64,000 nucleotides of DNA from Eubacteriaceae bacterium (GTDB lineage: Bacteria > Bacillota > Clostridia > Peptostreptococcales > Anaerovoracaceae), in contig CABIXY010000002.1 of the NCBI GenBank assembly GCA_902362805.1, positions 1 to 64,000 on the forward strand. The letters run 5' to 3'. This document shows, one piece after another, positions 30,677-47,690 of this stretch. The notes beneath the pieces were generated by a model. It did no database searches. It was not told the origin of the DNA and saw nothing but the letters and a program-made list of their open reading frames with translations. Position 1 is the stretch's first letter. Each line of letters begins with the position of its first letter. The translations under genes were made by a program, and so were the position numbers.

Positions 30677-30730
30677 TCCGTCCTCCTTAATGGTATAATG
30701 GTCTGTCCTGTGAGCTGTGAGAAGCTAGAC

Positions 30731-30877
30731 AGACCTTATGCTTTGGGAGACCTAACCCGATTTCGTGAAGCGGAATCGCCGGTAGGTCCCCGGTCAAAAG
30801 TGCAGCGCTTTAGCGCGTGGCACTTGACGACCACGCCCCGCAAACGAAGTGAGTGGAACGGCGTTAGTCGTATAATG
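30731..30877 (-). ncRNA. Structured 147-nt leader element, copy A
   Basis: Read on the minus strand, this runs from CATTATACGACTA to AAAGCATAAGGTCT and lies directly upstream of the oxidoreductase start, with GGAGG about 45 nt after it. It matches copy B (47544-47690) over exactly 147 positions with about 21 differences and no gaps. Three stems are shared: CCGTTCC/GGCGTGG, AAGTGC/GCACTT enclosing GCGC-TAAA-GCGC, and ACCTA/TAGGT enclosing CGATT/AATCG. A further stem, GGTCTGTC/GACAGACC, follows it. Differences between the copies mostly keep pairs (AAGTGC/GCACTT here, GAGTGC/GCACTC in B). A cis-acting RNA is the best reading; a mobile palindromic element is the alternative. Confidence 0.6.
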
Positions 30878-31102
30878 GCTATCACTTTGTTATAACATAG
30901 GAAATATCGTCCAAAGGACGTATTTCCGTATGTTTCAACGTTCGCTTTGCTCACTCCTCCAGTCGCTGACGCTCTTTTCGCTGTCCGTTTCGCCTAGCCA
31001 GCTAAAGCTGGGGCGAAAAGGCAAAGAACGTACCTTACGAAGCGTCGCCCCTTGCGGGCGACATGAGTGCATAGGAGTGACGCTCCGTTATGCACTCGTT
31101 TT
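30878..31102. other. Hairpin-rich intergenic DNA between aconitase X and the oxidoreductase
   Basis: No gene. Three hairpins are visible: GGAAATA-CGTCC/GGACG-TATTTCC (30900-30928, sharing the core ATAGGAAATATCG with the palindrome at 4709), CCAGCT/AGCTGG (near 31000), and GTCGCCC/GGGCGAC (near 31044-31062). A fourth hairpin, with a relative at 36250, is listed separately. The promoter of the oxidoreductase, if separate, must lie here, but no clear -35/-10 pair was identified. Confidence 0.6.
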
Positions 31103-31106
31103 TTAC
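31065..31106. repeat. Dispersed hairpin repeat, copy 1
   Basis: GAGTGCATA (31065-31073) pairs exactly with TATGCACTC (31089-31097), with an inner GGAG/CTCC stem, followed by GTTTTTTAC. The same 40-bp pattern recurs at 36250-36288 with base changes that keep the outer stem. This copy covers the stop codon of the gene at 31103. Confidence 0.75.
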
Positions 31107-31546
31107 TCAACGGTTACGCTGCCGTCTGTGGCAACGGTGACCGTCATGCCATCTTTGATGTAGTCTAAAAACGCTTCTCCCAGATTGTCAATGACTGGCA
31201 TCTCTGCATCAGTCCAGTTGGCTGCCAGGATTGCACCGGAAGCCGCCAGGGAGTCGATAGGTTTAGAAAAAAGCATGCACGCAGGTTGTTTCCCCATGGC
31301 ACAGGCTGTATAGAGCACCATGCCGCCGGTGGTCGAACCGATGGTTTCTGGAAGGCAGAGGGCCTTGCCGATCATGGATTTCTTGTAGAGGTCACTGTTA
31401 TTCTGATCGCCGCATTTGACCTTCTTGTCACCGAACATCAAAGCCATCTGGTAGCTGGCCAGGGTGTTGAAACCGCCGCGTGAAACCAGGGCTTCGGCGG
31501 TGACACTGCCGGGAGCGACGACGCGGCCTTTGAATTCTCTTGCCAT
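31103..31546 (-). CDS. Aconitase X small subunit (swivel domain, DUF126)
   Basis: The 147-residue protein is the swivelling domain of the aconitase X family: MAREFKGRVVAPGSVTAEAL, VSRGGFNTLASY, CLPETIGSTTGGMVLYTAC and PACMLFSKPIDSLAASG. In this family it closes over the Fe-S active site of the large subunit, which is encoded 1 bp upstream on the same strand. Bacterial aconitase X enzymes with this split arrangement include cis-3-hydroxy-L-proline dehydratases; archaeal ones dehydrate phosphomevalonate. A proline racemase or hydroxyproline gene is not seen nearby, so the substrate is open. Length is normal. Confidence 0.88.
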   Translation of the reverse strand: MAREFKGRVVAPGSVTAEALVSRGGFNTLASYQMALMFGDKKVKCGDQNNSDLYKKSMIGKALCLPETIGSTTGGMVLYTACAMGKQPACMLFSKPIDSLAASGAILAANWTDAEMPVIDNLGEAFLDYIKDGMTVTVATDGSVTVE

Positions 31547-31547
31547 A

Positions 31548-32819
31548 TTATTGCACCCCCTTGGTAATCATCGTCAAAATCTCTTCGTCGGTGTAAAATC
31601 TGGCGCTGGTATAGGTGCGCAGCTTGTTGGACGAAGTGATGACGGGCATTTTCTTTGAGAGTGGGTTATTCATATACATGAGTGGGCAGATGTAGCTGAG
31701 GATGATGCCTGTCTGCTCCAGTCTCTTATAGTATTCTGTTTCCTTGAATTCACTGATAACACCGGGCGCAGAAGTGAAGACCGTTGGAATCTGCACTTTT
31801 TTGTTCCCGCAAGCCTTGAGCGCCTCTTCGACACGTTCTGTCCAGTCTTTCAGCTGTGCCAGGGTCATGTGAGGACAGCCCATGAAACAGAGCTTTGGTT
31901 TGGCATCCGGGTCTTTCCAGATGCAGGGGTAGCTGTCCTTTACCCGCGTTAGTTCCGCATCGTCGATGATGTAAACCGGGGCATTTTCGCGAATCAGTTC
32001 TTCGCCGTAGTCTACGGCTTCCGGGGTTAAGTTCTCGACATGATAAAGCCCGACGGAGCCGTTGGACGCAGTGGCAGCGCCAAAGTCCTTGAGGTAGGCG
32101 CAGGCGGCATCGTCTAATGTAGAACCGATCCATTTGTCCAATCCTCTGATGTACGGCACTTGATCCAGGACCTTCATGCCGATGGCGGAGCCGAGAATCT
32201 GCGCTTCCGGCATCTTTTCCGTGCGGATTTCCACGATCCAGTCGGCTTTGCGTCCATCGTCGGTCAGAAGTCCGAATTCAGGAACAAATCCGACGATAGA
32301 ACCCATCAGTTCGATGATGCCGGAGTTCCGGTTACATCTAGCACCGAGAACGCTATTTGCATAGACCACTGCGGAAGATTCAGCCCAGGAGAGGATCTCG
32401 CCCCTTTTTGGCACATTACCGACTTCTGGCAGGTAGCAGGCGCAAGTATAGGCGTCCTCACTTAAGAGCCCCAGTTTGCGCAGCTGTTCTTCGTAATGCT
32501 CCTGCTGGCTGTACATGAACTTGAAGACGATGTTCTGCAGAAAAGACGAGGGGACGTTTTTGTCCAGGGGTCTTGGATCTGCTGAGAATTTCTGTTTGCT
32601 GACAGCTTGAGCGGACAGAAGCCGATCGTACAGTTCGTAGACCGGCGTCATGACGCCGATGCCGAAGCTGATGACGGTATGACCGTATTCGTTTGTAATT
32701 GGAACCATTTTCTCAGCGCCGAAGGCTTCGCCGTACATGACAAGGGTTTTGACAATCTTTGCCATGGTTTCGCCTTGCGCGCCGTCAAGCAGTGCCTGTT
32801 GTCCTTTTGTGAGAATCAT
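31548..32819 (-). CDS. Aconitase X catalytic subunit (DUF521)
   Basis: The 423-residue large subunit starts MILTKGQQALLDGAQGETMA, the standard opening. Conserved segments include NEYGHTVISFGIG, SWAESSAVVYANSVLGARCN with the cysteine used as an Fe-S ligand in the family, LCFMGCPHMTLAQL with a second cysteine, and FTSAPGVIS. The partner swivel subunit follows immediately. Together they would dehydrate a hydroxy acid or hydroxyproline using an iron-sulfur cluster. GGAGG and a consensus promoter lie upstream. The following oxidoreductase could act on the resulting unsaturated product, which is an inference from gene order. Confidence 0.9.
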   Translation of the reverse strand: MILTKGQQALLDGAQGETMAKIVKTLVMYGEAFGAEKMVPITNEYGHTVISFGIGVMTPVYELYDRLLSAQAVSKQKFSADPRPLDKNVPSSFLQNIVFKFMYSQQEHYEEQLRKLGLLSEDAYTCACYLPEVGNVPKRGEILSWAESSAVVYANSVLGARCNRNSGIIELMGSIVGFVPEFGLLTDDGRKADWIVEIRTEKMPEAQILGSAIGMKVLDQVPYIRGLDKWIGSTLDDAACAYLKDFGAATASNGSVGLYHVENLTPEAVDYGEELIRENAPVYIIDDAELTRVKDSYPCIWKDPDAKPKLCFMGCPHMTLAQLKDWTERVEEALKACGNKKVQIPTVFTSAPGVISEFKETEYYKRLEQTGIILSYICPLMYMNNPLSKKMPVITSSNKLRTYTSARFYTDEEILTMITKGVQ

Positions 32820-32870
32820 GCTATCATTCCTCCATATGTTTTAAAATGATACCGAATATTCTATATTTTC

Positions 32871-32899
32871 ATTATACTGTTTTATCGGAGGTATTTCAA
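32871..32899 (-). promoter_or_regulatory. Promoter of the aconitase X genes
   Basis: On the minus strand TTGAAA (32899-32894) and TATAAT (32876-32871) are spaced 17 bp, about 50 bp upstream of the start codon. Confidence 0.85.
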
Positions 32900-32967
32900 G
32901 ATACTGGGGCAAAGTTGGACTGACTTTGCAGTTTTTTATTTAAGCAAGAAATAAAACGGGTAAAAGT

Positions 32968-33001
32968 GCCATAAAAGCATCTAAATCCACTCATTTATGG
33001 C
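32968..33001. repeat. 34-bp hairpin repeat, copy 1
   Basis: GCCATAAA pairs exactly with TTTATGGC around an 18-base loop containing CTAAATCC and CTCA. It differs from copy 2 (33178-33211) at two positions only. The loop-stem junction CTCATTTATGGC resembles CTCATTTGCGGAC of the 93-bp array read in reverse. Confidence 0.85.
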
Positions 33002-33177
33002 AATTTTTGAGAAATGAAGCTGATTTTTTGACTGTTTATCCAAAAAAATGGAAAAAGTGCAAAGGGAATAGAAAACTATATAATAATAAAACTTTATAAA
33101 AAATACGATTTTGAAGCGTAAACGTTATGAACAAATGCATTTTTGCTGTCCGAAAGGGCGGATGAAAACGGAAATCT

Positions 33178-33211
33178 GCCATAAAAGCACCTAAATCCGC
33201 TCATTTATGGC
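33178..33211. repeat. 34-bp hairpin repeat, copy 2
   Basis: Same arms GCCATAAA/TTTATGGC, 210 bp from copy 1 and in the same orientation. The remaining sequence of the 526-bp gap (32820-33345) is AT-rich with no open frame or recognisable gene. It holds only the aconitase promoter, these two repeats and a hairpin at 33294. Confidence 0.85.
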
Positions 33212-33293
33212 ACTTTTGCCGGATTTAAAAATTTGTCGGACCTATAAGTTAAGAAATTGTCTACGTCAAGGCTGTCCTCATCTTCCATAGGTG

Positions 33294-33325
33294 AGAAGCT
33301 CTCCGGATGAGATTTGAGAGCTTCT
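33294..33325 (-). terminator. Possible terminator hairpin after the MFS gene
   Basis: AGAAGCTCTC pairs exactly with GAGAGCTTCT around a 12-base loop, 21 bp beyond the stop of the MFS gene on the minus strand. A T-run is lacking. Confidence 0.45.
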
Positions 33326-33345
33326 TATCCGTCATTTCCACGGTT

Positions 33346-34545
33346 TTAACTGTTCCTTTTTCGATAGAGGAACCAGATGACTGCATCCACAGCCAGACAG
33401 ATGGCGGCAATCATGAACCAGGTCTGTGTATAGGTATGGGATTGCAGCAGCCATCCGGTGAATACGGGGCCGGTCAGTCTGCCCAGACCTCTAGAGAACT
33501 CGTAGAGAGACATACTGCGGCCTTTGTGGGTTTCCGGTGACTGATCGGCTATGTAGATGCCTGCACAGGTGGAAATCAAGATTTCTCCGCTGGTCCAGAT
33601 GACCACTGCCATCATATAGATCAGGACGCTGCTGGAGAATCCATAGAGTGAGAAACCTGCGGCGTAGAGGAGGCAGGCAAAACCGATGTTGAACAGGGGA
33701 TGCTTTTTCTTGGTAAAAGAAACGATGATCGGCGTACAGACTACGACCACGCCTCCATTGACGGTCCAGACCAGTGAACTGTATTTTGACCCTGCATTGA
33801 GACCGAACAGATCCCTAAGCTGCAGAGGCAGCATAAAGTCCAAATTGATATAGCAGAGTGTCAGTACGGCAAGACAGATGGTGAATACAAGCAGAACAGG
33901 ATTCTGCAGAACAATCGAAAGCTGACTGTCCTGCTTCACCTTTTCCAAATGCTTCGTTTTTTTGTGGGGAATATAGACATCCTGTACACTGCACAAAACG
34001 AGAATAAAGGTAATCAGGAAAATCAAGGACATACTGAAAAATATCCACGGCATATGGCTGTAGAATAACATGCCGGCAATGACAGGTCCCAGAGCGCTTC
34101 CGATATTTCCTGATAAATACATCAAAGAGAAACATTCTGTCTTGTTGCTTTCATCCGCCCAGTCGAGGATCATGGCCGATACCGTAGGCAAGATGGCGCT
34201 GGCAACAAAATAGGTGATGATGATGAAGAGAATCACCAGGTGCGTGGATGCAAAAAAACCAGCCACTGCCATCGTGATGATAACGACGAAGGTAGCGGCG
34301 ATATAGACTTTCTTGCGCCCGATTTCATCAGACAGTTTTCCGCCGGCCAGAGTTCCCAGGGTGCTGGCGATGGAAGCTACGACAACGATGTAGCTGGCTT
34401 CAATTTCTGTGTAACCCAGTCTGCTGGTCAACAGCAGAGATAAAAAAGGATATACAAACATCATTCCCATAGAAATAACCGCCCTGGAAATAGAAAGAAT
34501 GTATATCTGCTTTGGCAAGCCCTTGTACTGTGTTAAAAAGTTCAA
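33346..34545 (-). CDS. Major facilitator superfamily transporter (drug-exporter type)
   Basis: The 399-residue membrane protein has 12 predicted helices in two halves. The loop between helices 2 and 3 carries GGKLSDEIGRKKVYIAA, the MFS motif A, which points to a proton-coupled exporter (DHA1-like). A second-half copy is recognisable around SFTKKKHPLFNIG. The start is TTG at 34545, with AAGGAG 8 bases upstream; no in-frame ATG fits better. It stands alone with a consensus promoter. Substrate cannot be predicted. Confidence 0.85.
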   Translation of the reverse strand: MNFLTQYKGLPKQIYILSISRAVISMGMMFVYPFLSLLLTSRLGYTEIEASYIVVVASIASTLGTLAGGKLSDEIGRKKVYIAATFVVIITMAVAGFFASTHLVILFIIITYFVASAILPTVSAMILDWADESNKTECFSLMYLSGNIGSALGPVIAGMLFYSHMPWIFFSMSLIFLITFILVLCSVQDVYIPHKKTKHLEKVKQDSQLSIVLQNPVLLVFTICLAVLTLCYINLDFMLPLQLRDLFGLNAGSKYSSLVWTVNGGVVVVCTPIIVSFTKKKHPLFNIGFACLLYAAGFSLYGFSSSVLIYMMAVVIWTSGEILISTCAGIYIADQSPETHKGRSMSLYEFSRGLGRLTGPVFTGWLLQSHTYTQTWFMIAAICLAVDAVIWFLYRKRNS

Positions 34546-34569
34546 TGTCTCATCTCCTTTGTAAGATGC

Positions 34570-34598
34570 AATATACTATTGTGATAGAATTTTGTCAA
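34570..34598 (-). promoter_or_regulatory. Promoter of the MFS gene
   Basis: On the minus strand TTGACA (34598-34593) and TATATT (34575-34570) are separated by 17 bp, a near-consensus sigma-70 promoter about 25 bp before the start codon. Confidence 0.85.
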
Positions 34599-34681
34599 GA
34601 CGTTCTGATTGATCTGTGATAATGTCTCAAGTAAACGTAAAAGAAAATATCCCAGGCAGTCACAGTCTACGCCTGAGACAT

Positions 34682-34728
34682 AAAAGAAGAAGCTGCCGAC
34701 AGAAATTCTCGTGCCAGCAGCTTCTTTT
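34682..34728 (-). terminator. Terminator of the nhaC-type gene at 34748
   Basis: AAAAGAAG-AAGCTGC pairs with GCAGCTT-CTTTT around a loop of about 20 bases, just beyond the stop of the minus-strand carrier. Confidence 0.7.
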
Positions 34729-34747
34729 ACTTTCAATTAGGATGGGC

Positions 34748-36172
34748 TCAGGCCTCTAATGCGGCATCTTGTGCGGCAATCTCCTCATCTGTGACTTTGG
34801 TCATAGTGAATCCTGTGAGGACATAGATAAATCCAATCAGGGTGCTGAGCCATGTCAGCGGCGCATAGATGAAAAAGTCTGAGTTTGCAACTCCGAGAGT
34901 CGCCGCGTAGAATGCGCCCATACCGCCCCAAGGAATCAGCGGCGATAAGCTGATGGTGCAGTCCTGCAAGATACGAGATAAATTTTTTCTGTGCAGGTGG
35001 TATTTATCGAACAAGTCTGGCAGCATAGGACCCAGGGCGGCATAGGTCAGATCGTATCCGCCAGTGATGACGAAGAAGGTCAGACACATGCCATACACTT
35101 TGACGACCATGGATTTTGAACTCTTAGATGTGGTAGTGATTAAGTCCAGCAGAGCATCGATAACACCAGCTGCCCGCAGCGGCGCGCCGAATACGCAGGC
35201 TGCGATTAAAATCGCTGCGATTTCCAGGAAACTTGCCAGTCCGCCTCTGAGGATGATGGAGTCGATGATTTCAATACCGGACGCTTCGCCATACCCGTTC
35301 ATCATGACACTGGCAACGTCACCGATGGATGCACTCTGAAATACCATGGACAGTATGGCTCCGAGGACGATACCTACGGCAAAGGTAGGAAGAATCGGCT
35401 TTTTCATGATGATCAGTACGATGACGACGATAGGAGGAAGCAGCAGCAATGGATTCAGGCTGTAAATAGAGGAGAGGCCATTCACAATCGTATCATATGC
35501 TTCTGTTCCAGTTCCCGCACCGGCAGCATCGTTGTTAAATCCAAGTATCAGGAAGTAAACCAGGCAGATAACCAGTGCAGGCAGAGAAGTCTTTGCCGCG
35601 TGGATGCAGCCTTCAAAGAGGTTTACCTTGGATACTGCAGTGGATACGTTAGGGGAATCTGACATTGGAGACAGCTTGTCTCCGCAGAGAGCCCCGCTGG
35701 CAATGGCGCCGGCTGTAATGACCGGTGACATGCCCAGACCAGAGGCCATGCCTAAAAATGCAATACCTACGGTACTGATGGTGCCCCAGGAGGATCCCAT
35801 GATCAGAGCCATGATGGTGCAGATCAGACAGGTCAGGAAATAGAACAGGGATGGGCTGATAACTTGTATTCCGTAATATACCATGATAGGTACTGTTCCG
35901 GATAGGACCCAGGTGCCGATCATCATGCCTACTGAAAATATGATCAGAATCGGCATGATCATATTTTTGACCAGTGTGATAATGGTGGACTGAATATCAC
36001 TGTACTTCGTTCCGAAGATGACAGCGATGACGGACAGTAAGGCTCCAACGGACAATAGGATGACAGCATCAGCGTCTTCTGTGACTAAAAAGCCGACAAC
36101 TACGAGGACAATTCCTAAGATCAGCATGAAGAAAGCCTGCGGCTTTGTGACTTTTTTGCTTGATGTACTCAT
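34748..36172 (-). CDS. NhaC-type Na+/H+ antiporter family carrier, first of three
   Basis: The 474-residue protein has about 11 hydrophobic helices and the NhaC/ArsB-clan patterns LIMGSSWGTISTVGIAFLGM, AGAIASGALCGDKLSPMSDS and LSPLIPWGGMGAFYAATLG. NhaC proteins exchange sodium for protons, but several relatives are sodium- or proton-coupled organic acid carriers (for example malate/lactate exchange). ATG 36172 with GAAAGGA is preferred to the longer frame from 36244. A sigma-54 promoter lies at 36302-36319 on the same strand, with a 120-nt leader holding a hairpin repeat. Sigma-54 control next to catabolic genes makes a nutrient carrier more likely than simple salt balance. Confidence 0.85.
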   Translation of the reverse strand: MSTSSKKVTKPQAFFMLILGIVLVVVGFLVTEDADAVILLSVGALLSVIAVIFGTKYSDIQSTIITLVKNMIMPILIIFSVGMMIGTWVLSGTVPIMVYYGIQVISPSLFYFLTCLICTIMALIMGSSWGTISTVGIAFLGMASGLGMSPVITAGAIASGALCGDKLSPMSDSPNVSTAVSKVNLFEGCIHAAKTSLPALVICLVYFLILGFNNDAAGAGTGTEAYDTIVNGLSSIYSLNPLLLLPPIVVIVLIIMKKPILPTFAVGIVLGAILSMVFQSASIGDVASVMMNGYGEASGIEIIDSIILRGGLASFLEIAAILIAACVFGAPLRAAGVIDALLDLITTTSKSSKSMVVKVYGMCLTFFVITGGYDLTYAALGPMLPDLFDKYHLHRKNLSRILQDCTISLSPLIPWGGMGAFYAATLGVANSDFFIYAPLTWLSTLIGFIYVLTGFTMTKVTDEEIAAQDAALEA

Positions 36173-36249
36173 TTTGCATATTCCTTTCTTTCTTATAATG
36201 TTGTAAAATATTCCTAAGTTATATTCCAGTGATGCACGTGTCACTTTTT

Positions 36250-36288
36250 ATGCATGGGAGCGATGCTCCATCACGCACTCGTTTTTAC
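36250..36288. repeat. Dispersed hairpin repeat, copy 2
   Basis: ATGCATGGGAGCGATGCTCC followed by ATCACGCACTCGTTTTTAC. Outer stem ATGCATG/CGTGCGT-type pairing and inner GGAGC/GCTCC. It is related to 31065-31106 with compensating changes, and here lies in the leader of the nhaC gene. Confidence 0.7.
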
Positions 36289-36301
36289 ATGACTTAAGAA
36301 A

Positions 36302-36319
36302 AGCAATTTCTGTGCCAAA
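36302..36319 (-). promoter_or_regulatory. Sigma-54 (-24/-12) promoter of the nhaC gene
   Basis: Minus strand reads TTGGCACAGAAATTGCT, with the GG and GC dinucleotides exactly 10 bases apart, as RpoN promoters require. It faces away from the sigma-54 promoter at 36493, leaving about 175 bp between them for activator binding. Confidence 0.85.
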
Positions 36320-36492
36320 ATATCTTAGAAGTCAAAAATCTCTGAAAGTTGACCTTTGTAAGGGTCTTCTTGAGAAATAAAGCAAAAGAGAATCGAACAG
36401 AAAAAGAAAATTAGGAAAAGAATTAACCTAAAAGCTCAATTTGCCTCCGTTGCTCCAGGATCATTTCTTTGGAAAAAGGCAGATTAATATGG
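36320..36492. other. Region between divergent sigma-54 promoters, probable activator-binding DNA
   Basis: AT-rich and without any open frame. Because both flanking promoters are of the -24/-12 type, enhancer sites for the activator encoded at 37340 are expected here. Candidate half-sites such as TTGCCTCCGTTGCTCC (near 36440) are visible, but no clear palindrome could be confirmed by eye. Confidence 0.45.
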
Positions 36493-36509
36493 TGGCATGA
36501 AGTTTGCTT
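36493..36509 (+). promoter_or_regulatory. Sigma-54 (-24/-12) promoter of the nitroreductase gene
   Basis: TGGCATGAAGTTTGCTT has GG (36494-36495) and GC (36506-36507) 10 bases apart. Transcription would start near 36520, about 50 bp upstream of the start codon. Confidence 0.88.
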
Positions 36510-36569
36510 TATAATGACAGTATACCTATAAGAAAAAGAAATTTGCAATGTGAAATGGAGGAGAAAGAA

Positions 36570-37322
36570 ATGAATGCAGTGGAGAACTTGATGGTAAATC
36601 ATAAATCAGTCAGGAAATTTAAGAATCAACCGGTGTCAGACGCGCTTTTGGAGAGAATGATCAGATGCGCACAGCATGCTGCTACATCGGAATTCATCCA
36701 GGCATATACCATCATAAAGGTCACAGATCAAAAGACGAAAGAAACCCTTTATAATGAAGTGACAAGCCAGAAGCCGATCTTAAATGCACCCGTGTTTTTA
36801 GTATTCTGTGCCGATGTCAGCCGCCTGCTGCGGGCCAGTGAAATGAATCAGCGTGAAGCGCCAGAAGCCTACATGGAATACACAGAGACTTTTCTCATGG
36901 CATCGGTGGACACCGCCATCGCAGCACAGAACGCAGTGCTGGCAGCAGAATCAGAAGGGTTGGGCTGCACTTATATCGGCGGAATCAGAAATAACCTGCC
37001 GAAGGTCATGGAACTGCTTGCTATTCCGCAGGGAGTATATCCGCTGTTCGGCATGGTTTTAGGGTATCCGGAAGAGCAGACAGACGAGGCGGCAAAGCCG
37101 AGGCTGCCCCTTGACGTCATATTCAAAGAAGAAAAGTATCATATTGACGGAGAGGAAGAACAGATCAGAGCCTACGATGAAGTAATCAGACAGTATTATA
37201 TCGATAGAACTGGCGGGAAACGAGATGAAACCTGGTCCATGCAGATGTCGGACTTTGTGGAAAAACCCCAGAGGCCATTTTTAAAAGATGTTTTGGAAAA
37301 GCAGGGATTTAAGCTGAAATAA
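36570..37322 (+). CDS. NfsA/FRP-type nitroreductase or flavin reductase
   Basis: The 250-residue FMN enzyme shows the NfsA family pattern: HKSVRKFKNQPVSDALLERM, then CAQHAATSEFIQAYTIIKVT, DTAIAAQNAVLAAESEGLGC and YIGGIRNNLPKVMELL, ending in KPRLPLDVIFKEEKYH. Such enzymes use NAD(P)H to reduce nitro compounds, quinones or flavins. ATG 36570 follows GGAGGAGAAAGAA; the longer frame from 36504 would start inside the promoter. It is driven by a sigma-54 promoter and followed 17 bp later by a sigma-54 activator gene, likely its own regulator. Physiological substrate is unknown. Confidence 0.88.
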   Translation: MNAVENLMVNHKSVRKFKNQPVSDALLERMIRCAQHAATSEFIQAYTIIKVTDQKTKETLYNEVTSQKPILNAPVFLVFCADVSRLLRASEMNQREAPEAYMEYTETFLMASVDTAIAAQNAVLAAESEGLGCTYIGGIRNNLPKVMELLAIPQGVYPLFGMVLGYPEEQTDEAAKPRLPLDVIFKEEKYHIDGEEEQIRAYDEVIRQYYIDRTGGKRDETWSMQMSDFVEKPQRPFLKDVLEKQGFKLK

Positions 37323-37339
37323 AGAAAGGATTTGCGATT

Positions 37340-39403: not shown

Positions 39404-39440
39404 AAAGCAGATGCGGCCATCAAAACCGTATCTGCTTTTT
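39402..39440. terminator. Bidirectional terminator after the first activator gene
   Basis: AAAAAGCAGAT pairs exactly with ATCTGCTTTTT across a 17-base loop. It serves the convergent permease gene as well. Confidence 0.85.
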
Positions 39441-39458
39441 AAATAATGCAATAGATTG

Positions 39459-40196
39459 TTACATGTTAAATTTGCTGTTTAGGGCTTTAACGCAATAAGT
39501 GAAAAGTCCTGCGATGACCACGATATAGAAACCATCGGTCAGCCCTTCCAGAAGCAGACTGTTGAAACCATTTTTCAACAGCGTTTTACAAAGAAACTCT
39601 GCGCCGGTGGTGATGGCAAAATTGATTCCATAGATGACCAGCCATGCGGGTACTGCCAATTTGTCCGGCTTGATTAAATGAAAGGACAGCAAGACGGTAA
39701 ATGCAAAGGTGCAGAAGAATACTTGCTGCAGCAGCATTTTAAGCGGGAGCAGCCCCATAAGGATGCCGATTTGCATCGGCGGTACATCAGCATTCAGATA
39801 TTCCTTCAGTACCTCGACGCCGATGTCGGTGACATCCACATCAAAGAACAGCACCATGACCAGGGAGGCAGCCAAAGCCACCAAACTGATCAGCAGCATG
39901 TAGATGCTTCCTGCCAGAACTTTGCTCATAACAATCTCTCTCTCTGAAAGAGGCAGGGCCATATAGAAAGAGCCTTCCGCGTTAAAAAGAGAGGTGCTGA
40001 AAATTTTGTTCAACCCTTTGATGCTGAAGACGATTGTTGCAATGGAGCATACCAAAAGCACCAGAGGACCGATCAGCGCCGTCATCGCTTTGGCCAGGAG
40101 AATAGATAAAGTCCAGCCGGCGATGGAAAATCCGATTGCTTTAGAAAAATCGCTTCTGCCGATTTTCAGGTTCAGGTTGATTCCTTTACTGAGCAT
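39459..40196 (-). CDS. ABC-2-type permease-like membrane protein, copy 1
   Basis: The 245-residue protein has six predicted helices and the stretch EGSFYMALPLSEREIVMSKV. That is the loop typical of ABC-2 permeases in Firmicutes cell-envelope export systems. No ATPase is encoded in this cluster. It is a paralogue of the protein at 41396 (shared starts MLSKGINLNLKIGR and MLSKAISLNLKIGK; shared ENPLKMLLQQVFFC-type segment). The ATG follows the stop of the preceding gene directly (TAAATG), with AGGAGG inside that gene, so translation is coupled. It is the last of four genes. Role unknown. Confidence 0.75.
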   Translation of the reverse strand: MLSKGINLNLKIGRSDFSKAIGFSIAGWTLSILLAKAMTALIGPLVLLVCSIATIVFSIKGLNKIFSTSLFNAEGSFYMALPLSEREIVMSKVLAGSIYMLLISLVALAASLVMVLFFDVDVTDIGVEVLKEYLNADVPPMQIGILMGLLPLKMLLQQVFFCTFAFTVLLSFHLIKPDKLAVPAWLVIYGINFAITTGAEFLCKTLLKNGFNSLLLEGLTDGFYIVVIAGLFTYCVKALNSKFNM

Positions 40197-41381: not shown

Positions 41382-41395
41382 TTTGACACCCCCAA

Positions 41396-42118
41396 TCAAA
41401 TATTGTACTTACTGCATAAAGCTTTACTACTGTAAGATAGCAGGACCGCAATGACCACGACATACAAAATATCGGTAATCCCCTCCAGAAGAAAGATATT
41501 GAACCCCGCTCCTACGAGTTTGCCGGTTACAGCCGTTATACCAGAGCTGACAGCAGCGTTGATTCCGAAGATGACCAGCCACGCGACAACGGACAGCTTG
41601 CCGGGCTTGATCAAGTTGAAAGACAACAGGGCCGCCATGGCGAAGGAACAGAAGAACACCTGCTGCAGGAGCATCTTCAGAGGGGACAGACCCATGAGAA
41701 CGGCAATCTGTCCTGCAGTCATATGGAGGTCCATATATTGCTGCAGAGGACTCATCAGGATCTCTGTAACGTCCAGACCGATGAGATATGAAAGGATAGT
41801 GATGGCAAAAATCGCCGACACAGATACTAGATCCAAGAGAAGCATGTAGATGCTCCCAGCCGCGACTTTGCTGAGGACGATTTCCTTTTCGGACAACGGC
41901 AGGGCCATATAGAAAGTCCCCTGATTATCAAACAAAGATGTGCTGAAGATGCAATTCAGTCCTTTGATGCAGAAGACCGTAACTATGATGAGGCTGATTG
42001 CAAGGGGAATTCCTCCGGCGAGACTTGCGAGAGCGTAACCTGCTGCGGAAATGCCTATAGCTTTTGAGAAGTCATCTTTTCCGATTTTTAAATTGAGCGA
42101 GATTGCTTTACTGAGCAT
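41396..42118 (-). CDS. ABC-2-type permease-like membrane protein, copy 2
   Basis: A 240-residue, six-helix protein with NQGTFYMALPLSEKEIVLSK, the same permease loop as its paralogue at 39459. It follows the WG-repeat gene at 42119 without a gap (stop then ATG), so the two are translated together. The identical order in both halves of the cluster shows a two-gene tandem duplication. An ATP-binding partner must come from elsewhere if this is a true ABC permease. Confidence 0.75.
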   Translation of the reverse strand: MLSKAISLNLKIGKDDFSKAIGISAAGYALASLAGGIPLAISLIIVTVFCIKGLNCIFSTSLFDNQGTFYMALPLSEKEIVLSKVAAGSIYMLLLDLVSVSAIFAITILSYLIGLDVTEILMSPLQQYMDLHMTAGQIAVLMGLSPLKMLLQQVFFCSFAMAALLSFNLIKPGKLSVVAWLVIFGINAAVSSGITAVTGKLVGAGFNIFLLEGITDILYVVVIAVLLSYSSKALCSKYNI

Positions 42119-43276
42119 TTAAATCCCTTCTTTCAGGTTTATGATTCCATATTGTTCTTTGTACCTGACCGCAGCGTAACCTGCGTTGATTCTACCTACA
42201 GAATCGAAGATTGGTTCAAAGATGAATTTCCCTTCTTCATCAATGATGCCTTCTTTTTTGCCGTCTAGTGACAATGATGCGTAGCCGCCTGTGAAACGAG
42301 TATCTAATGGATCGCTGTTGCTGCAGCCTTCAAGGACAAACAGGGTTTTGCCTTTGGTGTCAATGCAGATGATTTTTTTATCAGCATAGATCAAAGCCTT
42401 ACCCTCTGCAAAGGGACAGGCTCCTTTGATGTCTTTGTACGCAAGGGGCAGAACGATTTCGTGAGATTCATTCATGTATCCGCAGATCCGTGCGTGACCA
42501 CGAGTAAGAGGAACATTATGTTTTTCGTCCACGATCAAATCGTCATAACGCTCGACGTAGGCGAGACCCTCTGAAAATTCTGGAAGCGTTTTGTACAAAA
42601 CCGCCCCTTGGGGAATGGCAAAGGCATCTGTCAGATAACAGTAGGTATCATCAGGGAGCCTGGCCATGTAACTGCCATTGTCGTCCGTCGTGATACCGAG
42701 GACCTTTGATGGCAGCGGCGTTTTGTCTCCGGTAGAGACGTCCAGGATATAGTGGGTACTGCCATTGACAAAATACTTGCCGCCTTTGATATAAGAAACA
42801 GCCGAGATCACTTCGTCTGCAAGGAGCTGGCTGCCGTCCCGGTTCAGCAGCTTGTGGCGGGAGCCGTCCCAAGCGATGGCGTATCCGTGATGGAACTCTT
42901 CTATGGAACGGTATTTCGCTTCGATGACAACCTTGCCGCTGGCATCTTTGACACCGCAAAGGTCTTCTTTCTCAAATAGGAAAAGTCCCTCGCCCAGGTT
43001 TCCGTCATCGGGAATCTCTTTCAGAACGCGTCCTGTGGCATCAATGAGAAACCATTTCTCCCCGTCATAGGCCTCGAACTGGCCCGGATTTTCTCCTGCG
43101 GTAATCCAGTCATACTGGTCTGTGGGTTCCATAGACCAGGGGATACTCTTAAGAATCTCTTTTTGGCTGTAGCTCAGAGTTACGGTTTTATATGCGGCAA
43201 AGGCAAAGAGCAGAGAAATCAGAATGAAAAGTGTGACGCCGACAGAAAGCGGATGTCGTTTGATAAATGCTTTCAT
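42119..43276 (-). CDS. Membrane-anchored WG-repeat protein, copy 2
   Basis: The 385-residue protein begins MKAFIKRHPLSVGVTLFILI, a signal anchor. It continues with WG-type repeats (CGVKDASGKVVIEAKY, CGYMNESHEIVLPLAY, EGIIDEEGKFIFEPIF). It is first in the four-gene minus-strand operon and is separated from its promoter by a 40-bp palindrome. Homology to the protein at 40197 is clear over the whole length though sequence has diverged, so the duplication is not recent. Function unknown. Confidence 0.78.
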   Translation of the reverse strand: MKAFIKRHPLSVGVTLFILISLLFAFAAYKTVTLSYSQKEILKSIPWSMEPTDQYDWITAGENPGQFEAYDGEKWFLIDATGRVLKEIPDDGNLGEGLFLFEKEDLCGVKDASGKVVIEAKYRSIEEFHHGYAIAWDGSRHKLLNRDGSQLLADEVISAVSYIKGGKYFVNGSTHYILDVSTGDKTPLPSKVLGITTDDNGSYMARLPDDTYCYLTDAFAIPQGAVLYKTLPEFSEGLAYVERYDDLIVDEKHNVPLTRGHARICGYMNESHEIVLPLAYKDIKGACPFAEGKALIYADKKIICIDTKGKTLFVLEGCSNSDPLDTRFTGGYASLSLDGKKEGIIDEEGKFIFEPIFDSVGRINAGYAAVRYKEQYGIINLKEGI

Positions 43277-43292
43277 GACATAGCTCCTTCTA

Positions 43293-43332
43293 GTGGTATT
43301 ATTGTATTAATTGATTAATACAATAATACCAC
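43293..43332. promoter_or_regulatory. 40-bp near-perfect palindromic operator
   Basis: GTGGTATTATTGTATTAAT and its exact complement are separated by TG only. The inner part GTATTAATTGATTAATAC resembles operators of GntR/YtrA-type repressors. It covers the -10 element of the promoter at 43323-43351 and continues downstream, so a bound repressor would block transcription. No GntR gene is present in the window. Confidence 0.85.
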
Positions 43333-43351
43333 TGAGCAGATGAAAAGTCAA
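43323..43351 (-). promoter_or_regulatory. Promoter of the WG/permease operon
   Basis: On the minus strand TTGACT (43351-43346) and TATTAT (43328-43323) are separated by 17 bp. The -10 lies inside the first arm of the palindrome. The remainder of the gap to 43594 has no gene. Confidence 0.75.
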
Positions 43352-43531
43352 TATGAAATCATATATTTTCCTGGTAACTTCGCTTGAATCATAATCATGG
43401 TTTTACTGAAAAACGCTGGTTGCCGCGTTAATCAGGCGAATCATTAACCTATTTTCCTGTCTCTTCTGTACTCTTTTTTAAAGGAATCGAAATAATCATT
43501 GAAATTCCAATAAATCCACTATTTCCATCAC

Positions 43532-43549
43532 TTGGCACGCTGTTTGCGT
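43532..43549 (+). promoter_or_regulatory. Sigma-54 promoter of the deacetylase-like pair
   Basis: TTGGCACGCTGTTTGCGT has GG (43534-43535) and GC (43546-43547) 10 bases apart, matching the RpoN consensus. It lies about 45 bp upstream of the start codon. Confidence 0.9.
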
Positions 43550-43594
43550 TTATATCTGACGGATACAGATGAAAGATCAAAAAAGGAGTGAAAA

Positions 43595-44452
43595 ATGGAA
43601 AGAATAAAGTGGCCGGAGGGCAAAAGAAGCGCGGTCATGTTCACTTTTGATGTGGACGGTGATACCACTTGGGAGAATGGAAACCGAGGCCTTCCCAATG
43701 GAGACAAATATATCAAATCCTTATCGGTAGGACAATATGGTCCTAAACGCTGCGTAGACAGAATTCTCGACAAGCTGGAGCAGTATGGCGTAAAGGCGAC
43801 ATTTTTCGTGCCAGGACTTACTGCAGAGAGATATCCAGAAGTAGTTCTGCGAATCGCAGAGGCAGGACATGAAATCGGACATCACGGTTATGCCCATGAA
43901 CGGTTTGCAGGACAGACTCCAGAGCAGCAGATTGAGATTATTGAAAAATCGCAGAAGATTTTCAAGGAATTGATCGGATATGAGGTAAAGGGATTTCGCA
44001 CGCCCTCAGGAGATTGGGCGGAGGAGACACCAAAACTTTTATACGAAAGAGGGTTTCGCTATTCAAGTTCCATGCGGGGTGACGACAGGCCCTACCGGAC
44101 TGTCATCGACGGCGAGGAAACAGATTTTATCGAAATACCGACCAAGTGGGAAGCAGATGATTATGTGGCAATGGCCTATCACATGTATCCGGCTGAGCCG
44201 GCAGGCCTGGACAGAATTTCCTGCTATCGGAATGTGGAAGATAACTTTATGAGAGAATTTCGCGGACACCACAGAGAGGGTCTGTGTATTTCCTATATGA
44301 GTCATCCTCAGATTATCGGCTCTCCGGGGAGGATTCAGATCCTGGATCATCTTCTGGCTGAAATTACAGGACGAGATGACGTGTGGGCGGCTACAGGCAG
44401 TGAAATCGCTGATTGGTACAGAGAACATCATTGGAAAAGAGAGGTGGAATAA
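43595..44452 (+). CDS. Polysaccharide deacetylase/PuuE-type hydrolase, canonical metal site
   Basis: The 285-residue protein is a carbohydrate-esterase-4-like barrel of the PuuE/HpPgdA subgroup. Metal and catalytic motifs are visible: motif 1 TFDVDGD (about residue 16), motif 2 HEIGHHGYAHERF with the H-x3-H pair, motif 3 GFRTPSGDW, and a C-terminal SHPQ. The subgroup includes allantoinase-like enzymes acting on cyclic amides as well as sugar deacetylases. The lack of signal peptide suggests a cytosolic amide substrate. It is driven by a sigma-54 promoter and followed 1 bp later by a degenerate paralogue. GGAGTG precedes the ATG. Confidence 0.85.
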   Translation: MERIKWPEGKRSAVMFTFDVDGDTTWENGNRGLPNGDKYIKSLSVGQYGPKRCVDRILDKLEQYGVKATFFVPGLTAERYPEVVLRIAEAGHEIGHHGYAHERFAGQTPEQQIEIIEKSQKIFKELIGYEVKGFRTPSGDWAEETPKLLYERGFRYSSSMRGDDRPYRTVIDGEETDFIEIPTKWEADDYVAMAYHMYPAEPAGLDRISCYRNVEDNFMREFRGHHREGLCISYMSHPQIIGSPGRIQILDHLLAEITGRDDVWAATGSEIADWYREHHWKREVE

Positions 44453-44453
44453 G

Positions 44454-45293
44454 ATGAGATTAGAACGACCAAAATGGCCTGCAGGCAGCTGCTGTGCGGC
44501 CATGATCACCATAAACCTCAATGCAGAACTCTTCTGGCTGCAGCTGGATTCTTCTTGCACTAATATGCCTAAGACGTTATCCCTTGGCCAGTACGGGATG
44601 ACTAGAGGCGTAAAGCGGATTCTCGATGTATTGGAGGAGCGGGGCATCAAAGCGACCTTTTTCACCCCGGGCTGGGTTGCGGAAAAATATAGCGAGAAGC
44701 TTTTGACCATCCGGGATAAAGGCCATGAAATTGCTGCCATGGGGTACAGACACGAGAACATGGCGCTGCTCAGCCTTGAAGAACAGACAGATGCCATAAA
44801 AAGGGGGATTGAATCCATAGAGAAAATCTGTGGTATTACGCCCAGGGGATTTCGCAGTCCGGAAGGAGAACTGACCTTGGAGACTTTGAGAATTGCTAAA
44901 AGCTGCGGCATGGAATATTCCAGCAATCTCTGTGACGACGACAGACCGTATAACAAAGACTTGGGGAATGGAGAGACACTTCTCGAAATCCCCGTACATT
45001 GGGTCAATTATGATTTGCCTTATTTTGCTTTCAACTATCACCCGGCATTTCCGGCAGGACAGGGAAGAATTGCAAATTATACGGGAGTATTGAACAACTG
45101 GTGTGATGAGTTTTACGGCTGTCACGAATACGGACTGTGCTATGTGCTGCAGCTGGACCCTGCTGCCATTGGCGCACCGGGAAGAATCAGCCTATTGGAA
45201 GATCTGCTGGACTACATGGAAAGCCTGGGCGGCGTGTGGTTTGCTACAGGCAGTGAAATGGCAGAATATTGCCGATGTCTCGAAAGAAAGTGA
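44454..45293 (+). CDS. Deacetylase-like paralogue lacking the metal-binding residues
   Basis: The 279-residue protein aligns end to end with the preceding gene (same SLGQYGMTRGVKRIL, GIKATFFTPGW, GFRSPEGE and DDDRPY blocks), but the key residues have changed. TFDVDGD has become TINLNAE, and HEIGHHGYAHE has become HEIAAMGYRHE. Thus the motif 1 aspartates and the first histidine of the metal site are missing. It may be a non-catalytic subunit, or use a different mechanism. ATG 44454 follows GAGGTGG at the end of the first gene, so the pair is cotranscribed and probably makes a hetero-oligomer. The frame is intact, against simple decay. Confidence 0.82.
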   Translation: MRLERPKWPAGSCCAAMITINLNAELFWLQLDSSCTNMPKTLSLGQYGMTRGVKRILDVLEERGIKATFFTPGWVAEKYSEKLLTIRDKGHEIAAMGYRHENMALLSLEEQTDAIKRGIESIEKICGITPRGFRSPEGELTLETLRIAKSCGMEYSSNLCDDDRPYNKDLGNGETLLEIPVHWVNYDLPYFAFNYHPAFPAGQGRIANYTGVLNNWCDEFYGCHEYGLCYVLQLDPAAIGAPGRISLLEDLLDYMESLGGVWFATGSEMAEYCRCLERK

Positions 45294-45358
45294 AAAGGCG
45301 TTGCCTTTCTAAAAGGTTCTTTGGTACAATGAGTACAAAGATCGAAGGAGAGGTAACG

Positions 45359-47437
45359 ATGATGAAAACCATTGCTGTAGTAGCTGTACATAAAGATTTT
45401 GCCGCCTTTATCAAGGCGGACTTAGAACAGTATTTTTCTGCATACGCCGAAATTCACGCATATGCAGAGGAAGAAATCGAACACATGGAGGAGATTCCAG
45501 AGGAGTTTGTGGTCATGTCGGCGCTGACCGTATTTCGAAAGGTACAGCCGAAGATGAAGGAACACGCTTTGACACAGGTCATCAGCTTTGCCGTCAGCCG
45601 CGATAATTTGGCCAGGCTTTCACAAGTGCCGCGGCACCAGAAAGTCCTGATGGTCAATGTGGACTACAAGATGTGTATGCAGGTCATCGCACAGATCTAT
45701 GAGCTGGGCTATCGGGACTTCGATTTTGTGCCCTATTACGGTGATGAAGAAAACAGAGACCGGAGCATCAAAACAGCGGTCACGCCTGATGAGATGACAA
45801 TGATACCGGCGGATATGGAGCGGATTATTGACATCGGAGGACGGCCTGTTGACATCAACTGCATTGTAGAACTGGCGAACAAAATGGGCATCGAGGACAT
45901 CTTCGGCTCGCGACAAGCGAAGGAGGCGCGAAAGCGTTTTGTGACGGCCTCTTTCGGTATTGACCGCGTTCTCAGTGATACAAAGGATAAGAATGAACAG
46001 ATTAAGACCCTCGTGGAACTGATTGAGGATGGTATCATTTTGACTGACGCGTCGGGTGTCGTACTGCTCAGCAACAAAAAAGCGCGCAGTATTCTGAAGA
46101 CGGAAATCGACGGTTTTAACACCGATGAGCTGCTGCCTGATTTTCCCATTAGAATGGAAGCGGAGGTGACTTCGGATAAAGTCATTGTCGTCGATGGCAA
46201 AGACATCGTCGTCAATGTGAGTCCGATCATCTCTGATGACAGATATACGGGGAACATTATCACCTTGAAGAACTTCGAGGAAACAGAGGAAAAGCAGCAC
46301 GGCATTCGTGCGCAGATTGCCAGGATTGGCCACGGTGCCAGATATACTTTTGATGATATTGTCGGCGTCAGCAGTCAGATTCGAGAGAGTGTAAAGGTGG
46401 CAGAGCGCATGGCAAAATCGGACTCTTCGGTTTTGATCATAGGCGAATCGGGCACTGGCAAAGAAGTCTTTGCCCAGAGCATCCACAATGGGTCAGGCAG
46501 GAGCAAACGGAATTTTGTTGCCCTCAATTGCGCCGCCATTCCTGAGCATCTTTTAGAAAGCGAACTGTTCGGCTATGAGGAGGGGGCTTTTACAGGGGCG
46601 AGAAAAGGCGGTAAAATCGGTTATTTTGAACTGGCTCACCAGGGGACGATTTTTCTCGATGAAATCGGGGAGATGCCGTTGGCGCTGCAGAGCAAACTGC
46701 TCCGGGTCCTGGAAGAAAAGACGGTGACGAGAATCGGTTCATCAAAGCTGATCGATATTGACGTGCGCATTATTGCCGCCACCAATAAAAATCTTCTGGA
46801 ATTGGTGGAACGAAAAGAATTCAGGGAGGACTTGTACTATCGAATCAATGTTCTGCCGCTGAACATCCCGCCTCTGAGAGAGCGAAAAGAGGATATTCCG
46901 TTTTTGATAGATGTCTTTATGGAAACCATGGGGAAGGAGTTGACTTTCTCCGACGAAGCGTCAAAACGTCTGCGCTCTCACCGCTGGAACGGAAACATCA
47001 GGGAACTGAAAAATGTCATAGAGTATTTGGAAAGTCTCGGCAAGCGACATATTGAAACAGGTGACTTACCGGTTTCGGTCTTTATGGTTCCGGAGCAAAA
47101 AGTATCTGCTGCCGCAGTAAAATTGAAGACTTACGATGGTTTAAAAGGAGAATTCCGTGATGTTATCTTCGGTTGGTGGAATGACAGGGTTCTGATTGCC
47201 AATATTTTGCTGGCATTGCAGGAGGCGGCAGCGGCTCAGAAAAAAATTGGCAGACGTCAGCTGGAGACGATTTTGCAGGAAAAGGGTTTCCTCTATACGG
47301 AAACGGAAATCAGAACCTGTCTGAGCAAGCTGGCGGGACTGGGATTTGTCAGATCACAGCATGGCAGAGGCGGCAGCGTCATTCTGCCGAAAGGAGACGA
47401 ACTTCTAAAAGAAATAATGGAATTAATGGGAGAATGA
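45359..47437 (+). CDS. Second sigma-54-dependent activator, paralogue of the one at 37340
   Basis: The 692-residue regulator has the same order: PrpR_N-like sensor (about 1-190), PAS domain (LIEDGIILTDASGVVLLSNK) and AAA+ domain. The AAA+ part has Walker A GESGTGKEVF, sigma-54 loop EEGAFTGARKGG and Walker B GTIFLDEIGEMP. A winged-helix-like C-terminus ends in HGRGGSVILP instead of a Fis helix-turn-helix. ATG 45359 follows GGAGAGG. TACAAT at 45325 with TTGCCT at 45301 offers its own weak promoter. It lies between the sigma-54 promoters of the deacetylase-like pair and the NhaC-argH transcript and probably activates one or both. The effector is unknown. Confidence 0.9.
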   Translation: MMKTIAVVAVHKDFAAFIKADLEQYFSAYAEIHAYAEEEIEHMEEIPEEFVVMSALTVFRKVQPKMKEHALTQVISFAVSRDNLARLSQVPRHQKVLMVNVDYKMCMQVIAQIYELGYRDFDFVPYYGDEENRDRSIKTAVTPDEMTMIPADMERIIDIGGRPVDINCIVELANKMGIEDIFGSRQAKEARKRFVTASFGIDRVLSDTKDKNEQIKTLVELIEDGIILTDASGVVLLSNKKARSILKTEIDGFNTDELLPDFPIRMEAEVTSDKVIVVDGKDIVVNVSPIISDDRYTGNIITLKNFEETEEKQHGIRAQIARIGHGARYTFDDIVGVSSQIRESVKVAERMAKSDSSVLIIGESGTGKEVFAQSIHNGSGRSKRNFVALNCAAIPEHLLESELFGYEEGAFTGARKGGKIGYFELAHQGTIFLDEIGEMPLALQSKLLRVLEEKTVTRIGSSKLIDIDVRIIAATNKNLLELVERKEFREDLYYRINVLPLNIPPLRERKEDIPFLIDVFMETMGKELTFSDEASKRLRSHRWNGNIRELKNVIEYLESLGKRHIETGDLPVSVFMVPEQKVSAAAVKLKTYDGLKGEFRDVIFGWWNDRVLIANILLALQEAAAAQKKIGRRQLETILQEKGFLYTETEIRTCLSKLAGLGFVRSQHGRGGSVILPKGDELLKEIMELMGE

Positions 47438-47493
47438 AAAACCCAATAAACCCTTCGGCGCAGAAGAAAACGTTGAAAAATTGGGGATTTTTG

Positions 47494-47510
47494 TTGGCAC
47501 GGTATTTGCT
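47494..47510 (+). promoter_or_regulatory. Sigma-54 promoter of the nhaC-argH transcript
   Basis: TTGGCACGGTATTTGCT has GG (47496-47497) and GC (47508-47509) 10 bases apart, a full match to the RpoN pattern. Transcription would begin near 47520 and include the structured element at 47544-47690 in a leader of about 220 nt. Confidence 0.9.
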
Positions 47511-47543
47511 ATATATTATGGCAAAGATCTTTTACCATTTTAT

Positions 47544-47690
47544 CATTATACGACTAGCGCCAAGCCGCTCGCATTGCTTGCGGGGCTTGGCCGTCGAGTG
47601 CCACGCGCTAAAGCGTTGCACTCTTGACCGGGAACCTACCAGCGATTCCGCATTGCTGAATCGGGTTAGGTCTCCCAAAGCATAAGGTCT
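47544..47690 (+). ncRNA. Structured 147-nt leader element, copy B
   Basis: Gap-free match to copy A (30731-30877, minus), with the same orientation relative to the downstream gene. Stems: CCAAGCC/GGCTTGG (47560-47566 with 47584-47590), GAGTGC/GCACTC enclosing CGC-TAAA-GCG, and GGGA-ACCTA/TAGGT-C-TCCC enclosing CGATTC/GAATCG. Right after it CCCC-AGC-AATTTGC pairs with GCAAATT-GGGG (47691-47718), just before AGGAGG. It lies between a sigma-54 promoter and the nhaC start. Changes from copy A fall mainly in pairs that stay paired or in loops. A regulatory RNA is the favoured reading. Confidence 0.65.

What the first reader, a model, noticed from the sequence alone, without database searches (positions are those of the whole stretch)
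30731..47690. A 147-nt structured leader element occurs twice, upstream of two unrelated genes
Seen: 30731-30877 (minus) and 47544-47690 (plus) align over exactly 147 positions with no gaps and about 21 differences. Each copy lies just upstream of the ribosome site of its gene, in the same orientation relative to that gene (an old-yellow-enzyme reductase and an NhaC carrier). Differences favour pairing: AAGTGC/GCACTT becomes GAGTGC/GCACTC, GCGC/GCGC becomes GCGC/GCGT, CCGTTCC/GGCGTGG becomes CCAAGCC/GGCTTGG, and G-T becomes A-T in the third stem. Both are followed by another hairpin before the Shine-Dalgarno. An ORF also runs through both copies, but six of its eight codon changes are non-synonymous, against a protein constraint. 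Inference: a cis-acting RNA, possibly a riboswitch, or a mobile palindromic element that settled in leaders.
Basis: partly seen in the sequence, partly recalled or inferred. Interest (0 to 1): 0.85.

Follow-up and report, generated by a model that had tools for sequence, protein, structure and literature searches.

The report
Mobile hairpin repeat beside translation signals
The two matching stretches belong to a family of small hairpin-forming repeats scattered through certain gut bacteria, whose right-hand end very often sits exactly at a ribosome-binding site or a stop codon; they look like mobile DNA rather than a gene switch.

Summary
In detail: 147 ungapped positions, 21 differences, strongly folded, each copy in the orientation of its downstream gene. 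The window comes from a close relative of Emergencia timonensis. A covariance model has 48 matches in that genome (some overlap inside arrays) and matches in 80 of 296 genomes of its family. The element is modular: hairpins A and T form a ~95-bp unit, single or tandem (10.5 copies at one site); an 88-nt module (BC) sits in A arms, inverted in T loops, inside other palindromes, or in its own arrays. Stems vary widely yet stay paired. Six presence/absence sites between relatives show insertion: copy 1 lies in a 416-bp insertion between operon genes that are 28 nt apart in E. timonensis. Striking: of 24 complete T ends in the E. timonensis DNA held, 18 abut a Shine-Dalgarno sequence with no gap and 3 coincide with the stop codon of a convergent gene; in ten other genomes 7 and 15 of 38. 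No transposase partner, Rfam family or publication was found. It is a new variant of the REP/BOX kind; how it comes to lie on translation signals is open.

The parts
30682..30688 (-). Shine-Dalgarno AAGGAGG of the old-yellow-enzyme-type gene, abutted by the right end of copy 1
   Evidence: read; gene 28625-30676; PF00724
30689..30699 (-). copy 1: right terminus (ATTATACCATT, a doubled CCATTA-type end) between the T hairpin and the Shine-Dalgarno
   Evidence: family right end CCATTA
30700..30735 (-). copy 1: T hairpin (GGTCTGTC...GACAGACC)
   Evidence: T hairpins tabulated
30734..30744 (-). copy 1: constant right flank of the A arm, AAAGCATAAGG
   Evidence: invariant in alignments A1 and A3
30744..30831 (-). 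copy 1: BC module (88 nt, hairpins B and C), inserted in the A arm
30832..30877 (-). copy 1: constant left flank CATTATACGAC and variable stem of the A arm
30878..31102 (-). stretch upstream of copy 1 that carries a second, unrelated repeat family (called F2 here), part of the same 416-bp insertion
   Evidence: three motifs of it recur 7 to 12 times each in the E. timonensis DNA held; insertion
47495..47509 (+). sigma-54-like promoter TGGCAC-N5-TTGC upstream of copy 2 (consensus recalled, not from a call); kept in E. timonensis and in an ortholog without the element
47544..47589 (+). copy 2: left flank CATTATACGAC and variable stem of the A arm
47590..47677 (+). copy 2: BC module
47677..47687 (+). 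copy 2: constant right flank of the A arm, AAAGCATAAGG
47686..47726 (+). copy 2: T hairpin
47727..47735 (+). copy 2: right terminus ATTA running into the Shine-Dalgarno AGGAGG (47730-47735) of the NhaC gene (ATG at 47742)

Best explanation
The two copies belong to a family of non-autonomous, mobile palindromic repeats. SHOWN: dispersed copies; modular build (A-T units, single or tandem, plus an insertable BC module); filled and empty orthologous sites; two-sided stem changes; right (T) ends lying exactly on Shine-Dalgarno sequences or stop codons in most complete copies. INFERRED: copies spread as single-stranded or cruciform hairpins moved by a recombinase supplied in trans that I could not identify. 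Insertion is directed to, or kept only at, the border of translation signals. Once in place the hairpins are co-transcribed and act at most as spacers or mRNA-stability elements, without sensing a ligand. Copy 1 was added between acnX and the reductase gene. Copy 2 was added to an existing leader of the NhaC gene.
For: 48 model matches in E. timonensis; 80 of 296 family genomes at E<=0.001; BC in 46 of 297 order genomes and 9 of 391 class genomes at E<=1e-5; A-T unit in 11 of 296 at E<=1e-4. Tandem arrays: 10.5 x 96 bp. BC inside A arms, inverted in T loops, and inside other palindromes. Presence/absence pairs at six sites: reductase, aconitase X, NhaC, and three more. T ends: 18 of 24 with Shine-Dalgarno at gap 0, 3 of 24 on a stop codon, 1 at gap 16, 2 other; ten other genomes 7 and 15 of 38 terminal copies, 16 other. 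Background: 49 of 765 genes have TA directly before A?GGAG, and 121 of 3243 TA sites within 60 nt upstream lie 0-1 nt from it. Covariation: A stem 96.8% paired against 72.0% shuffled, 7 of 7 pairs with two-sided change; BC 96.7% against 87.1%, 11 of 24 pairs.
Against: No moving enzyme found: Y1_Tnp absent from E. timonensis and not associated with the element (28 of 80 carriers against 96 of 216 non-carriers, p 0.15); DDE_3 in 0 of 8 genomes; other recombinases not searched. No clean target duplication seen. 16 of 38 terminal copies outside E. timonensis are not anchored by my test (7 of these lack a proper CCATT end, 3 share one gene with a short gap). Stem conservation would also fit an RNA role: non-Watson-Crick pairs in BC lean to G.T on the written strand (42 against 7 A.C of 643 cells, 25 of the 42 from one conserved pair). 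Gene calls were simple longest-ORF calls, and the E. timonensis DNA held (1.59 Mb) was partly chosen around model matches.
Confidence: 0.85

Rival explanations
1. A cis-regulatory RNA (riboswitch or protein-binding leader) that controls genes directly downstream.
For: Strong structure and covariation; right end at the Shine-Dalgarno of the downstream gene in many copies; conserved unpaired stretches; G.U-leaning wobble pairs on the written strand.
Against: Absent upstream of orthologs: reductase gene 12 of 12 examined plus E. timonensis, NhaC 3 of 3. Both orientations, tandem and inverted copies, and copies behind stop codons. Downstream genes include murG, purD, lon, cobI, hemB, pfkA and atpD: no common pathway. 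No Rfam family at gathering score in the window or in 12 array loci, apart from unrelated Clostridiales-2 and S10-leader matches.
Confidence: 0.07
2. Hairpins recruited for a shared function at cistron borders (mRNA stabilisation, translational insulation, transcript processing), kept by selection rather than by target choice. Anchoring to the Shine-Dalgarno or stop codon would then reflect selection.
For: Anchoring at both kinds of translation signal; sites used in several genomes (the gdhA-like stop codon in L001, L006 and L213; the lon start in E. timonensis and G002); stems under pairing constraint.
Against: In the empty-site pairs insertion did not need deletion or rebuilding of the spacer. 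Nothing obvious distinguishes a gap of 0 from one of 5-15 nt for such a function. Reverse-oriented copies would present the complementary hairpin in the mRNA.
Confidence: 0.3
3. Integron attC-like sites: paired boxes, variable palindromes, tandem arrays.
For: The right arm of hairpin C reads GTTAGGT in most copies, which fits the recalled attC box GTTRRRY; arrays of variable palindromes.
Against: GTT is kept in only 21 of 27 BC copies and otherwise changes with its partner; no cassettes between units. An integrase was not searched.
Confidence: 0.02

Closest known systems
REP / REPIN elements (GTAG- and CGTC-tagged palindromes; PMC3733652, passages read)
   Same: Short palindromes in intergenic DNA, often clustered, some families inserted inside other palindromes; 23 of 27 BC copies carry GTAG (14) or CGTC (9) at the foot of hairpin B.
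   Different: BC is 88 nt with two hairpins, against 20-40 bp for REPs in that paper; the last G of the GTAG pairs here; no Y1 tyrosine transposase in E. timonensis and no association with one; A and T modules carry no such tag at their ends; anchoring at Shine-Dalgarno or stop codon is not described in the passages seen.
BOX elements of Streptococcus pneumoniae (PMC3049150, passages read)
   Same: Modular composite repeats with a variable number of tandem middle modules, predicted RNA folds, spread through the genome, effects on neighbouring genes reported.
   Different: Sequence similarity not tested; here the modules also nest inside each other and the right end is fixed to translation signals; an IS link is proposed for BOX, none found here.
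MITEs of the IS630/Tc1-mariner type (TA target; recalled)
   Same: The modules can be parsed as lying between TA dinucleotides (TA-TACGAC...AAAGCA-TA-AGG...CCAT-TA), and the right flank is TA in almost every complete copy.
   Different: DDE_3 absent from 8 of 8 carrier genomes; a TA duplication could not be shown; TA alone does not predict the anchoring.
bcr repeats of the Bacillus cereus group (seen only in search listings; otherwise recalled)
   Same: Dispersed, structured repeats of about this size.
   Different: Not compared.

Membership tests
Riboswitch / cis-regulatory leader RNA | kept upstream of orthologous genes | tested here: not met
   absent in 12 of 12 reductase orthologs and 3 of 3 NhaC orthologs examined, absent in E. 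timonensis reductase; NhaC copy kept, but decayed, in E. timonensis
Riboswitch / cis-regulatory leader RNA | same strand as the regulated gene | tested here: not met
   26 of 38 clusters face a gene start, 12 of 38 a gene end
Riboswitch / cis-regulatory leader RNA | match to a known Rfam family | tested here: not met
Riboswitch / cis-regulatory leader RNA | conserved, covarying structure | tested here: met
Riboswitch / cis-regulatory leader RNA | ligand-dependent expression | not testable with these tools
   needs reporter or in-line probing
REP / REPIN | GTAG or CGTC tag at one end of the palindrome | tested here: inconclusive
   23 of 27 BC copies, but the last G of the GTAG pairs in hairpin B, and A and T lack it
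REP / REPIN | partner Y1 (RAYT) transposase | tested here: not met
   none in E. timonensis; 28 of 80 carriers against 96 of 216 others
REP / REPIN | 20-40 bp single palindrome | tested here: not met
   BC 88 nt, A-T unit about 95 nt
BOX-like modular repeat | composite of distinct modules with variable tandem number | tested here: met
BOX-like modular repeat | sequence homology to boxA/boxB/boxC | not tested
   BOX sequences were not fetched
IS630-type MITE | TA target duplication | tested here: inconclusive
   TA on the right flank of complete copies; left flanks vary
IS630-type MITE | IS630 transposase in the genome | tested here: not met
   DDE_3 in 0 of 8 carrier genomes
Integron attC | invariant GTT in the right box | tested here: not met
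   21 of 27

The most novel reading that the evidence does not exclude
A mobile element family whose insertion is directed by translation signals: its right end joins precisely at Shine-Dalgarno sequences or at stop codons (where the element's own TTA or CTA completes the stop), so that it spreads between cistrons of essential operons without harming translation. The target would be recognised as such, for example through single-stranded DNA or RNA at ribosome start and stop sites, rather than being left over by selection.
Probability: 0.35. Interest if true: 0.85.

Novelty: new variant of a known kind. Interest (0 to 1): 0.6.

Why it matters
Small palindromic repeats are common in bacteria, but few are known to have a fixed position relative to translation signals. 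A family that lands at ribosome-binding sites and stop codons, sits inside operons of essential genes (atpD, lon, murG, ribosomal proteins) and keeps its hairpins through dozens of compensated changes gives a direct test of how such repeats choose sites and what their structure is for. It also warns that a conserved, covarying 'leader RNA' found in two copies can be a mobile element.

Tried and rejected
Riboswitch: rejected on orthologs, orientation, tandem and inverted copies and gene mix. Known Rfam family: none. Viral, phage and plasmid origin: the tail and B-hairpin patterns gave 0 places in viral contigs, no match in phages, one short unrelated plasmid match. Y1_Tnp and DDE_3 as movers: no support. 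attC: GTT box not invariant. Selection among random TA sites as sole cause of the anchoring: unlikely (there I used a hand count of 22 of 24 for the probability, which later put at 18 with gap 0, 3 stop codons, 1 at gap 16 and 2 other, one of those reading TTA-AAGAGAGG). Adjacent deletion as cause of the anchoring: not seen at the reductase and aconitase-X sites. Stop codons of a gdhA-like gene (name by my reading) in relatives: 26 of 30 loci could be read, 23 TAA and 3 TAG, no element seen by eye in the 57 nt behind them, so the element copies stand where an ordinary stop was. First pair count on BC used a structure string shifted by one column and gave 40.2% paired; the corrected string gave 96.7%. 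One search printed the wrong side for orthologs on the minus strand; redone. Papers: (search listings) and passages of PMC3733652, PMC3049150, PMC2267715, PMC10213047; none describes this family in what I saw.
Full report
Observation. The two stretches are real: 147 nt each, 21 differences, no gaps, both folding better than shuffles, each just before the ribosome site of its gene. Rfam has no family for them.

Where it occurs. A 19-base pattern from the invariant tail found 10 places in 84,980 species genomes: eight other than a MAG lie in Emergencia (six loci of E. timonensis, three of Emergencia sp. 1XD21-10, one of an uncultured Eubacterium MAG). A model of 12 copies has 48 matches in E. 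timonensis, some overlapping inside arrays, 8 and 16 in the other two genomes, and matches in 80 of 296 family genomes at E<=0.001 (many are weak, and candidates were capped at 10 per genome). Orthologs of the two window genes in E. timonensis are 97% and 93% identical in protein, 13 kb apart, and nearly the whole window aligns to that region at 78-87% DNA identity with a number of gaps, so the window comes from a close relative.

Anatomy. The element is built of modules. The A arm has constant flanks TATACGAC and AAAGCATAAGG around a fully variable stem (21 units aligned: 96.8% of stem cells paired against 72.0% in shuffles, 7 of 7 pairs of the stem with two-sided change, no slid register above 48.1%). 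The T hairpin follows (GG...CC) and ends in CCATTA. A-T units of about 95 bp occur singly or head to tail: 10.5 copies of 96 bp before a DUF362-like gene (gene name by eye), five in L042. The BC module (88 nt) has its own structure (27 copies, 96.7% of cells paired against 87.1%, 11 of 24 pairs with two-sided change). Relatedness of copies inflates such shuffles, but the slid registers stay at 56.7% or less. BC lies in the A arm in both window copies and in most copies of alignment A1, inverted in T loops, inside other palindromes in other genomes, and in tandem arrays of its own. BC is the wider module (46 of 297 order genomes, 9 of 391 class genomes); the A-T unit was found in 11 of 296 family genomes (at most 14 candidates scored per genome).

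Mobility. Six sites are filled in one genome and empty in a relative. (1) Reductase gene: 426 nt from stop to start in the window, 28 nt in E. timonensis, with a 416-nt gap against 17 nt in the alignment; the insertion holds copy 1 and a second repeat family. (2) Aconitase X: E. timonensis has an A-T unit right before the Shine-Dalgarno, the window has none. (3) NhaC: the window and, decayed and with about 90 extra nt, E. timonensis have the element; an ortholog at 74% protein identity keeps the sigma-54-like promoter but not the element. (4-6) Three more sites between E. timonensis, 1XD21-10 and the MAG. None of four element motifs lies in the 300 nt upstream of 12 of 12 further reductase orthologs (of 15 matched outside E. 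timonensis) and 3 of 3 NhaC orthologs examined (of 32 matches).

The anchored right end. In the E. timonensis DNA held (1.59 Mb, 38 clusters) 24 clusters have a complete T end: 18 run straight into A(0-2)GGAG, 3 make the stop codon of a convergent gene with their TTA, 1 lies 16 nt before, 2 are other; 4 clusters are truncated there and 10 end in BC, of which 3 make a TAG stop, 6 are other and 1 is truncated. In ten other genomes 49 matches include 11 inside arrays; of the 38 terminal ones 15 are exactly the stop codon, 7 Shine-Dalgarno at gap 0 and 16 other, 7 of the 16 without a proper CCATT end. In genes without the element only 49 of 765 have TA directly before A?GGAG, and 121 of 3243 TA sites in the 60 nt upstream lie 0-1 nt from it. 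At one gene end (gdhA-like by my reading) two genomes carry a T end (stop TAA) and a third a BC end (stop TAG) at the same base, while 26 readable relatives have an ordinary TAA (23) or TAG (3). So the end is fixed to translation signals. Whether that is target choice or selection is not shown; the unaltered spacers in the pairs favour target choice.

Function. Genes behind Shine-Dalgarno-anchored copies include murG, purD, lon, cobI, hemB, pfkA and atpD (7 of 10 tested pass an NCBIfam cut-off), so a common ligand is unlikely. Clusters face gene starts in 26 and gene ends in 12 of 38 cases. I therefore take the element as mobile DNA whose structure serves its movement, possibly tolerated or used as a spacer hairpin in polycistronic mRNA. 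Non-Watson-Crick pairs in BC lean to G.T on the written strand (42 against 7 A.C, 25 from one pair), which fits folding of that strand as single-stranded DNA or RNA.

Mover. Y1_Tnp is absent from E. timonensis and not associated with carriers (28 of 80 against 96 of 216, p 0.15). DDE_3 is absent from 8 of 8 carriers. Other families were not searched.

Novelty. The nearest kinds are REP/REPIN and BOX (passages). 23 of 27 BC copies carry GTAG or CGTC at the foot of hairpin B, a lead to the tagged REPs, but size, missing transposase link and anchoring differ. No paper found in seven searches describes it.

Noticed in passing
window 30878-31102: A second dispersed repeat family (motifs GTCGCCCGCAAGGGGCGAC and AACATACGGAAATACGTCC, 12 hits each in the E. 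timonensis DNA held) stands directly upstream of copy 1 in the same insertion.
   Followed up: partly
window 26716-26825: A window-only insertion against E. timonensis carries a BC-like variant (TTGCATGAGACCTG); related motifs (up to 2 mismatches) occur 9 times in the E. timonensis DNA held.
   Followed up: partly
window 33239-33336, 50827-50883, 54832-55013: Further short intergenic insertions against E. timonensis, each with hairpin-like sequence.
   Followed up: no
window 4740-4820: Clostridiales-2 small RNA (RF02937, 83.6 bits).
   Followed up: no
L047 about 3880-3980: The E. timonensis ortholog of copy 2 has about 90 extra nt with its own palindromes in the loop of the A arm.
   Followed up: no
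L212 1685-2301, L214 2001-2695, L218 1731-1971: Tandem BC arrays at the 3' end of a secA-like gene (by eye) in three genomes, where the element seems to supply the last residues and the stop codon.
   Followed up: no
L215 1908-2084, L216 1783-1963, L226 2469-2557: BC-like units between ribosomal protein genes (by eye rpsJ-rplC in two genomes, rpsN-rpsH in one).
   Followed up: no
L016 about 1440-1460: In the MAG the right flank of an A arm (AAAGCATAAGGAG) itself seems to serve as the Shine-Dalgarno of the hemB-like gene.
   Followed up: no
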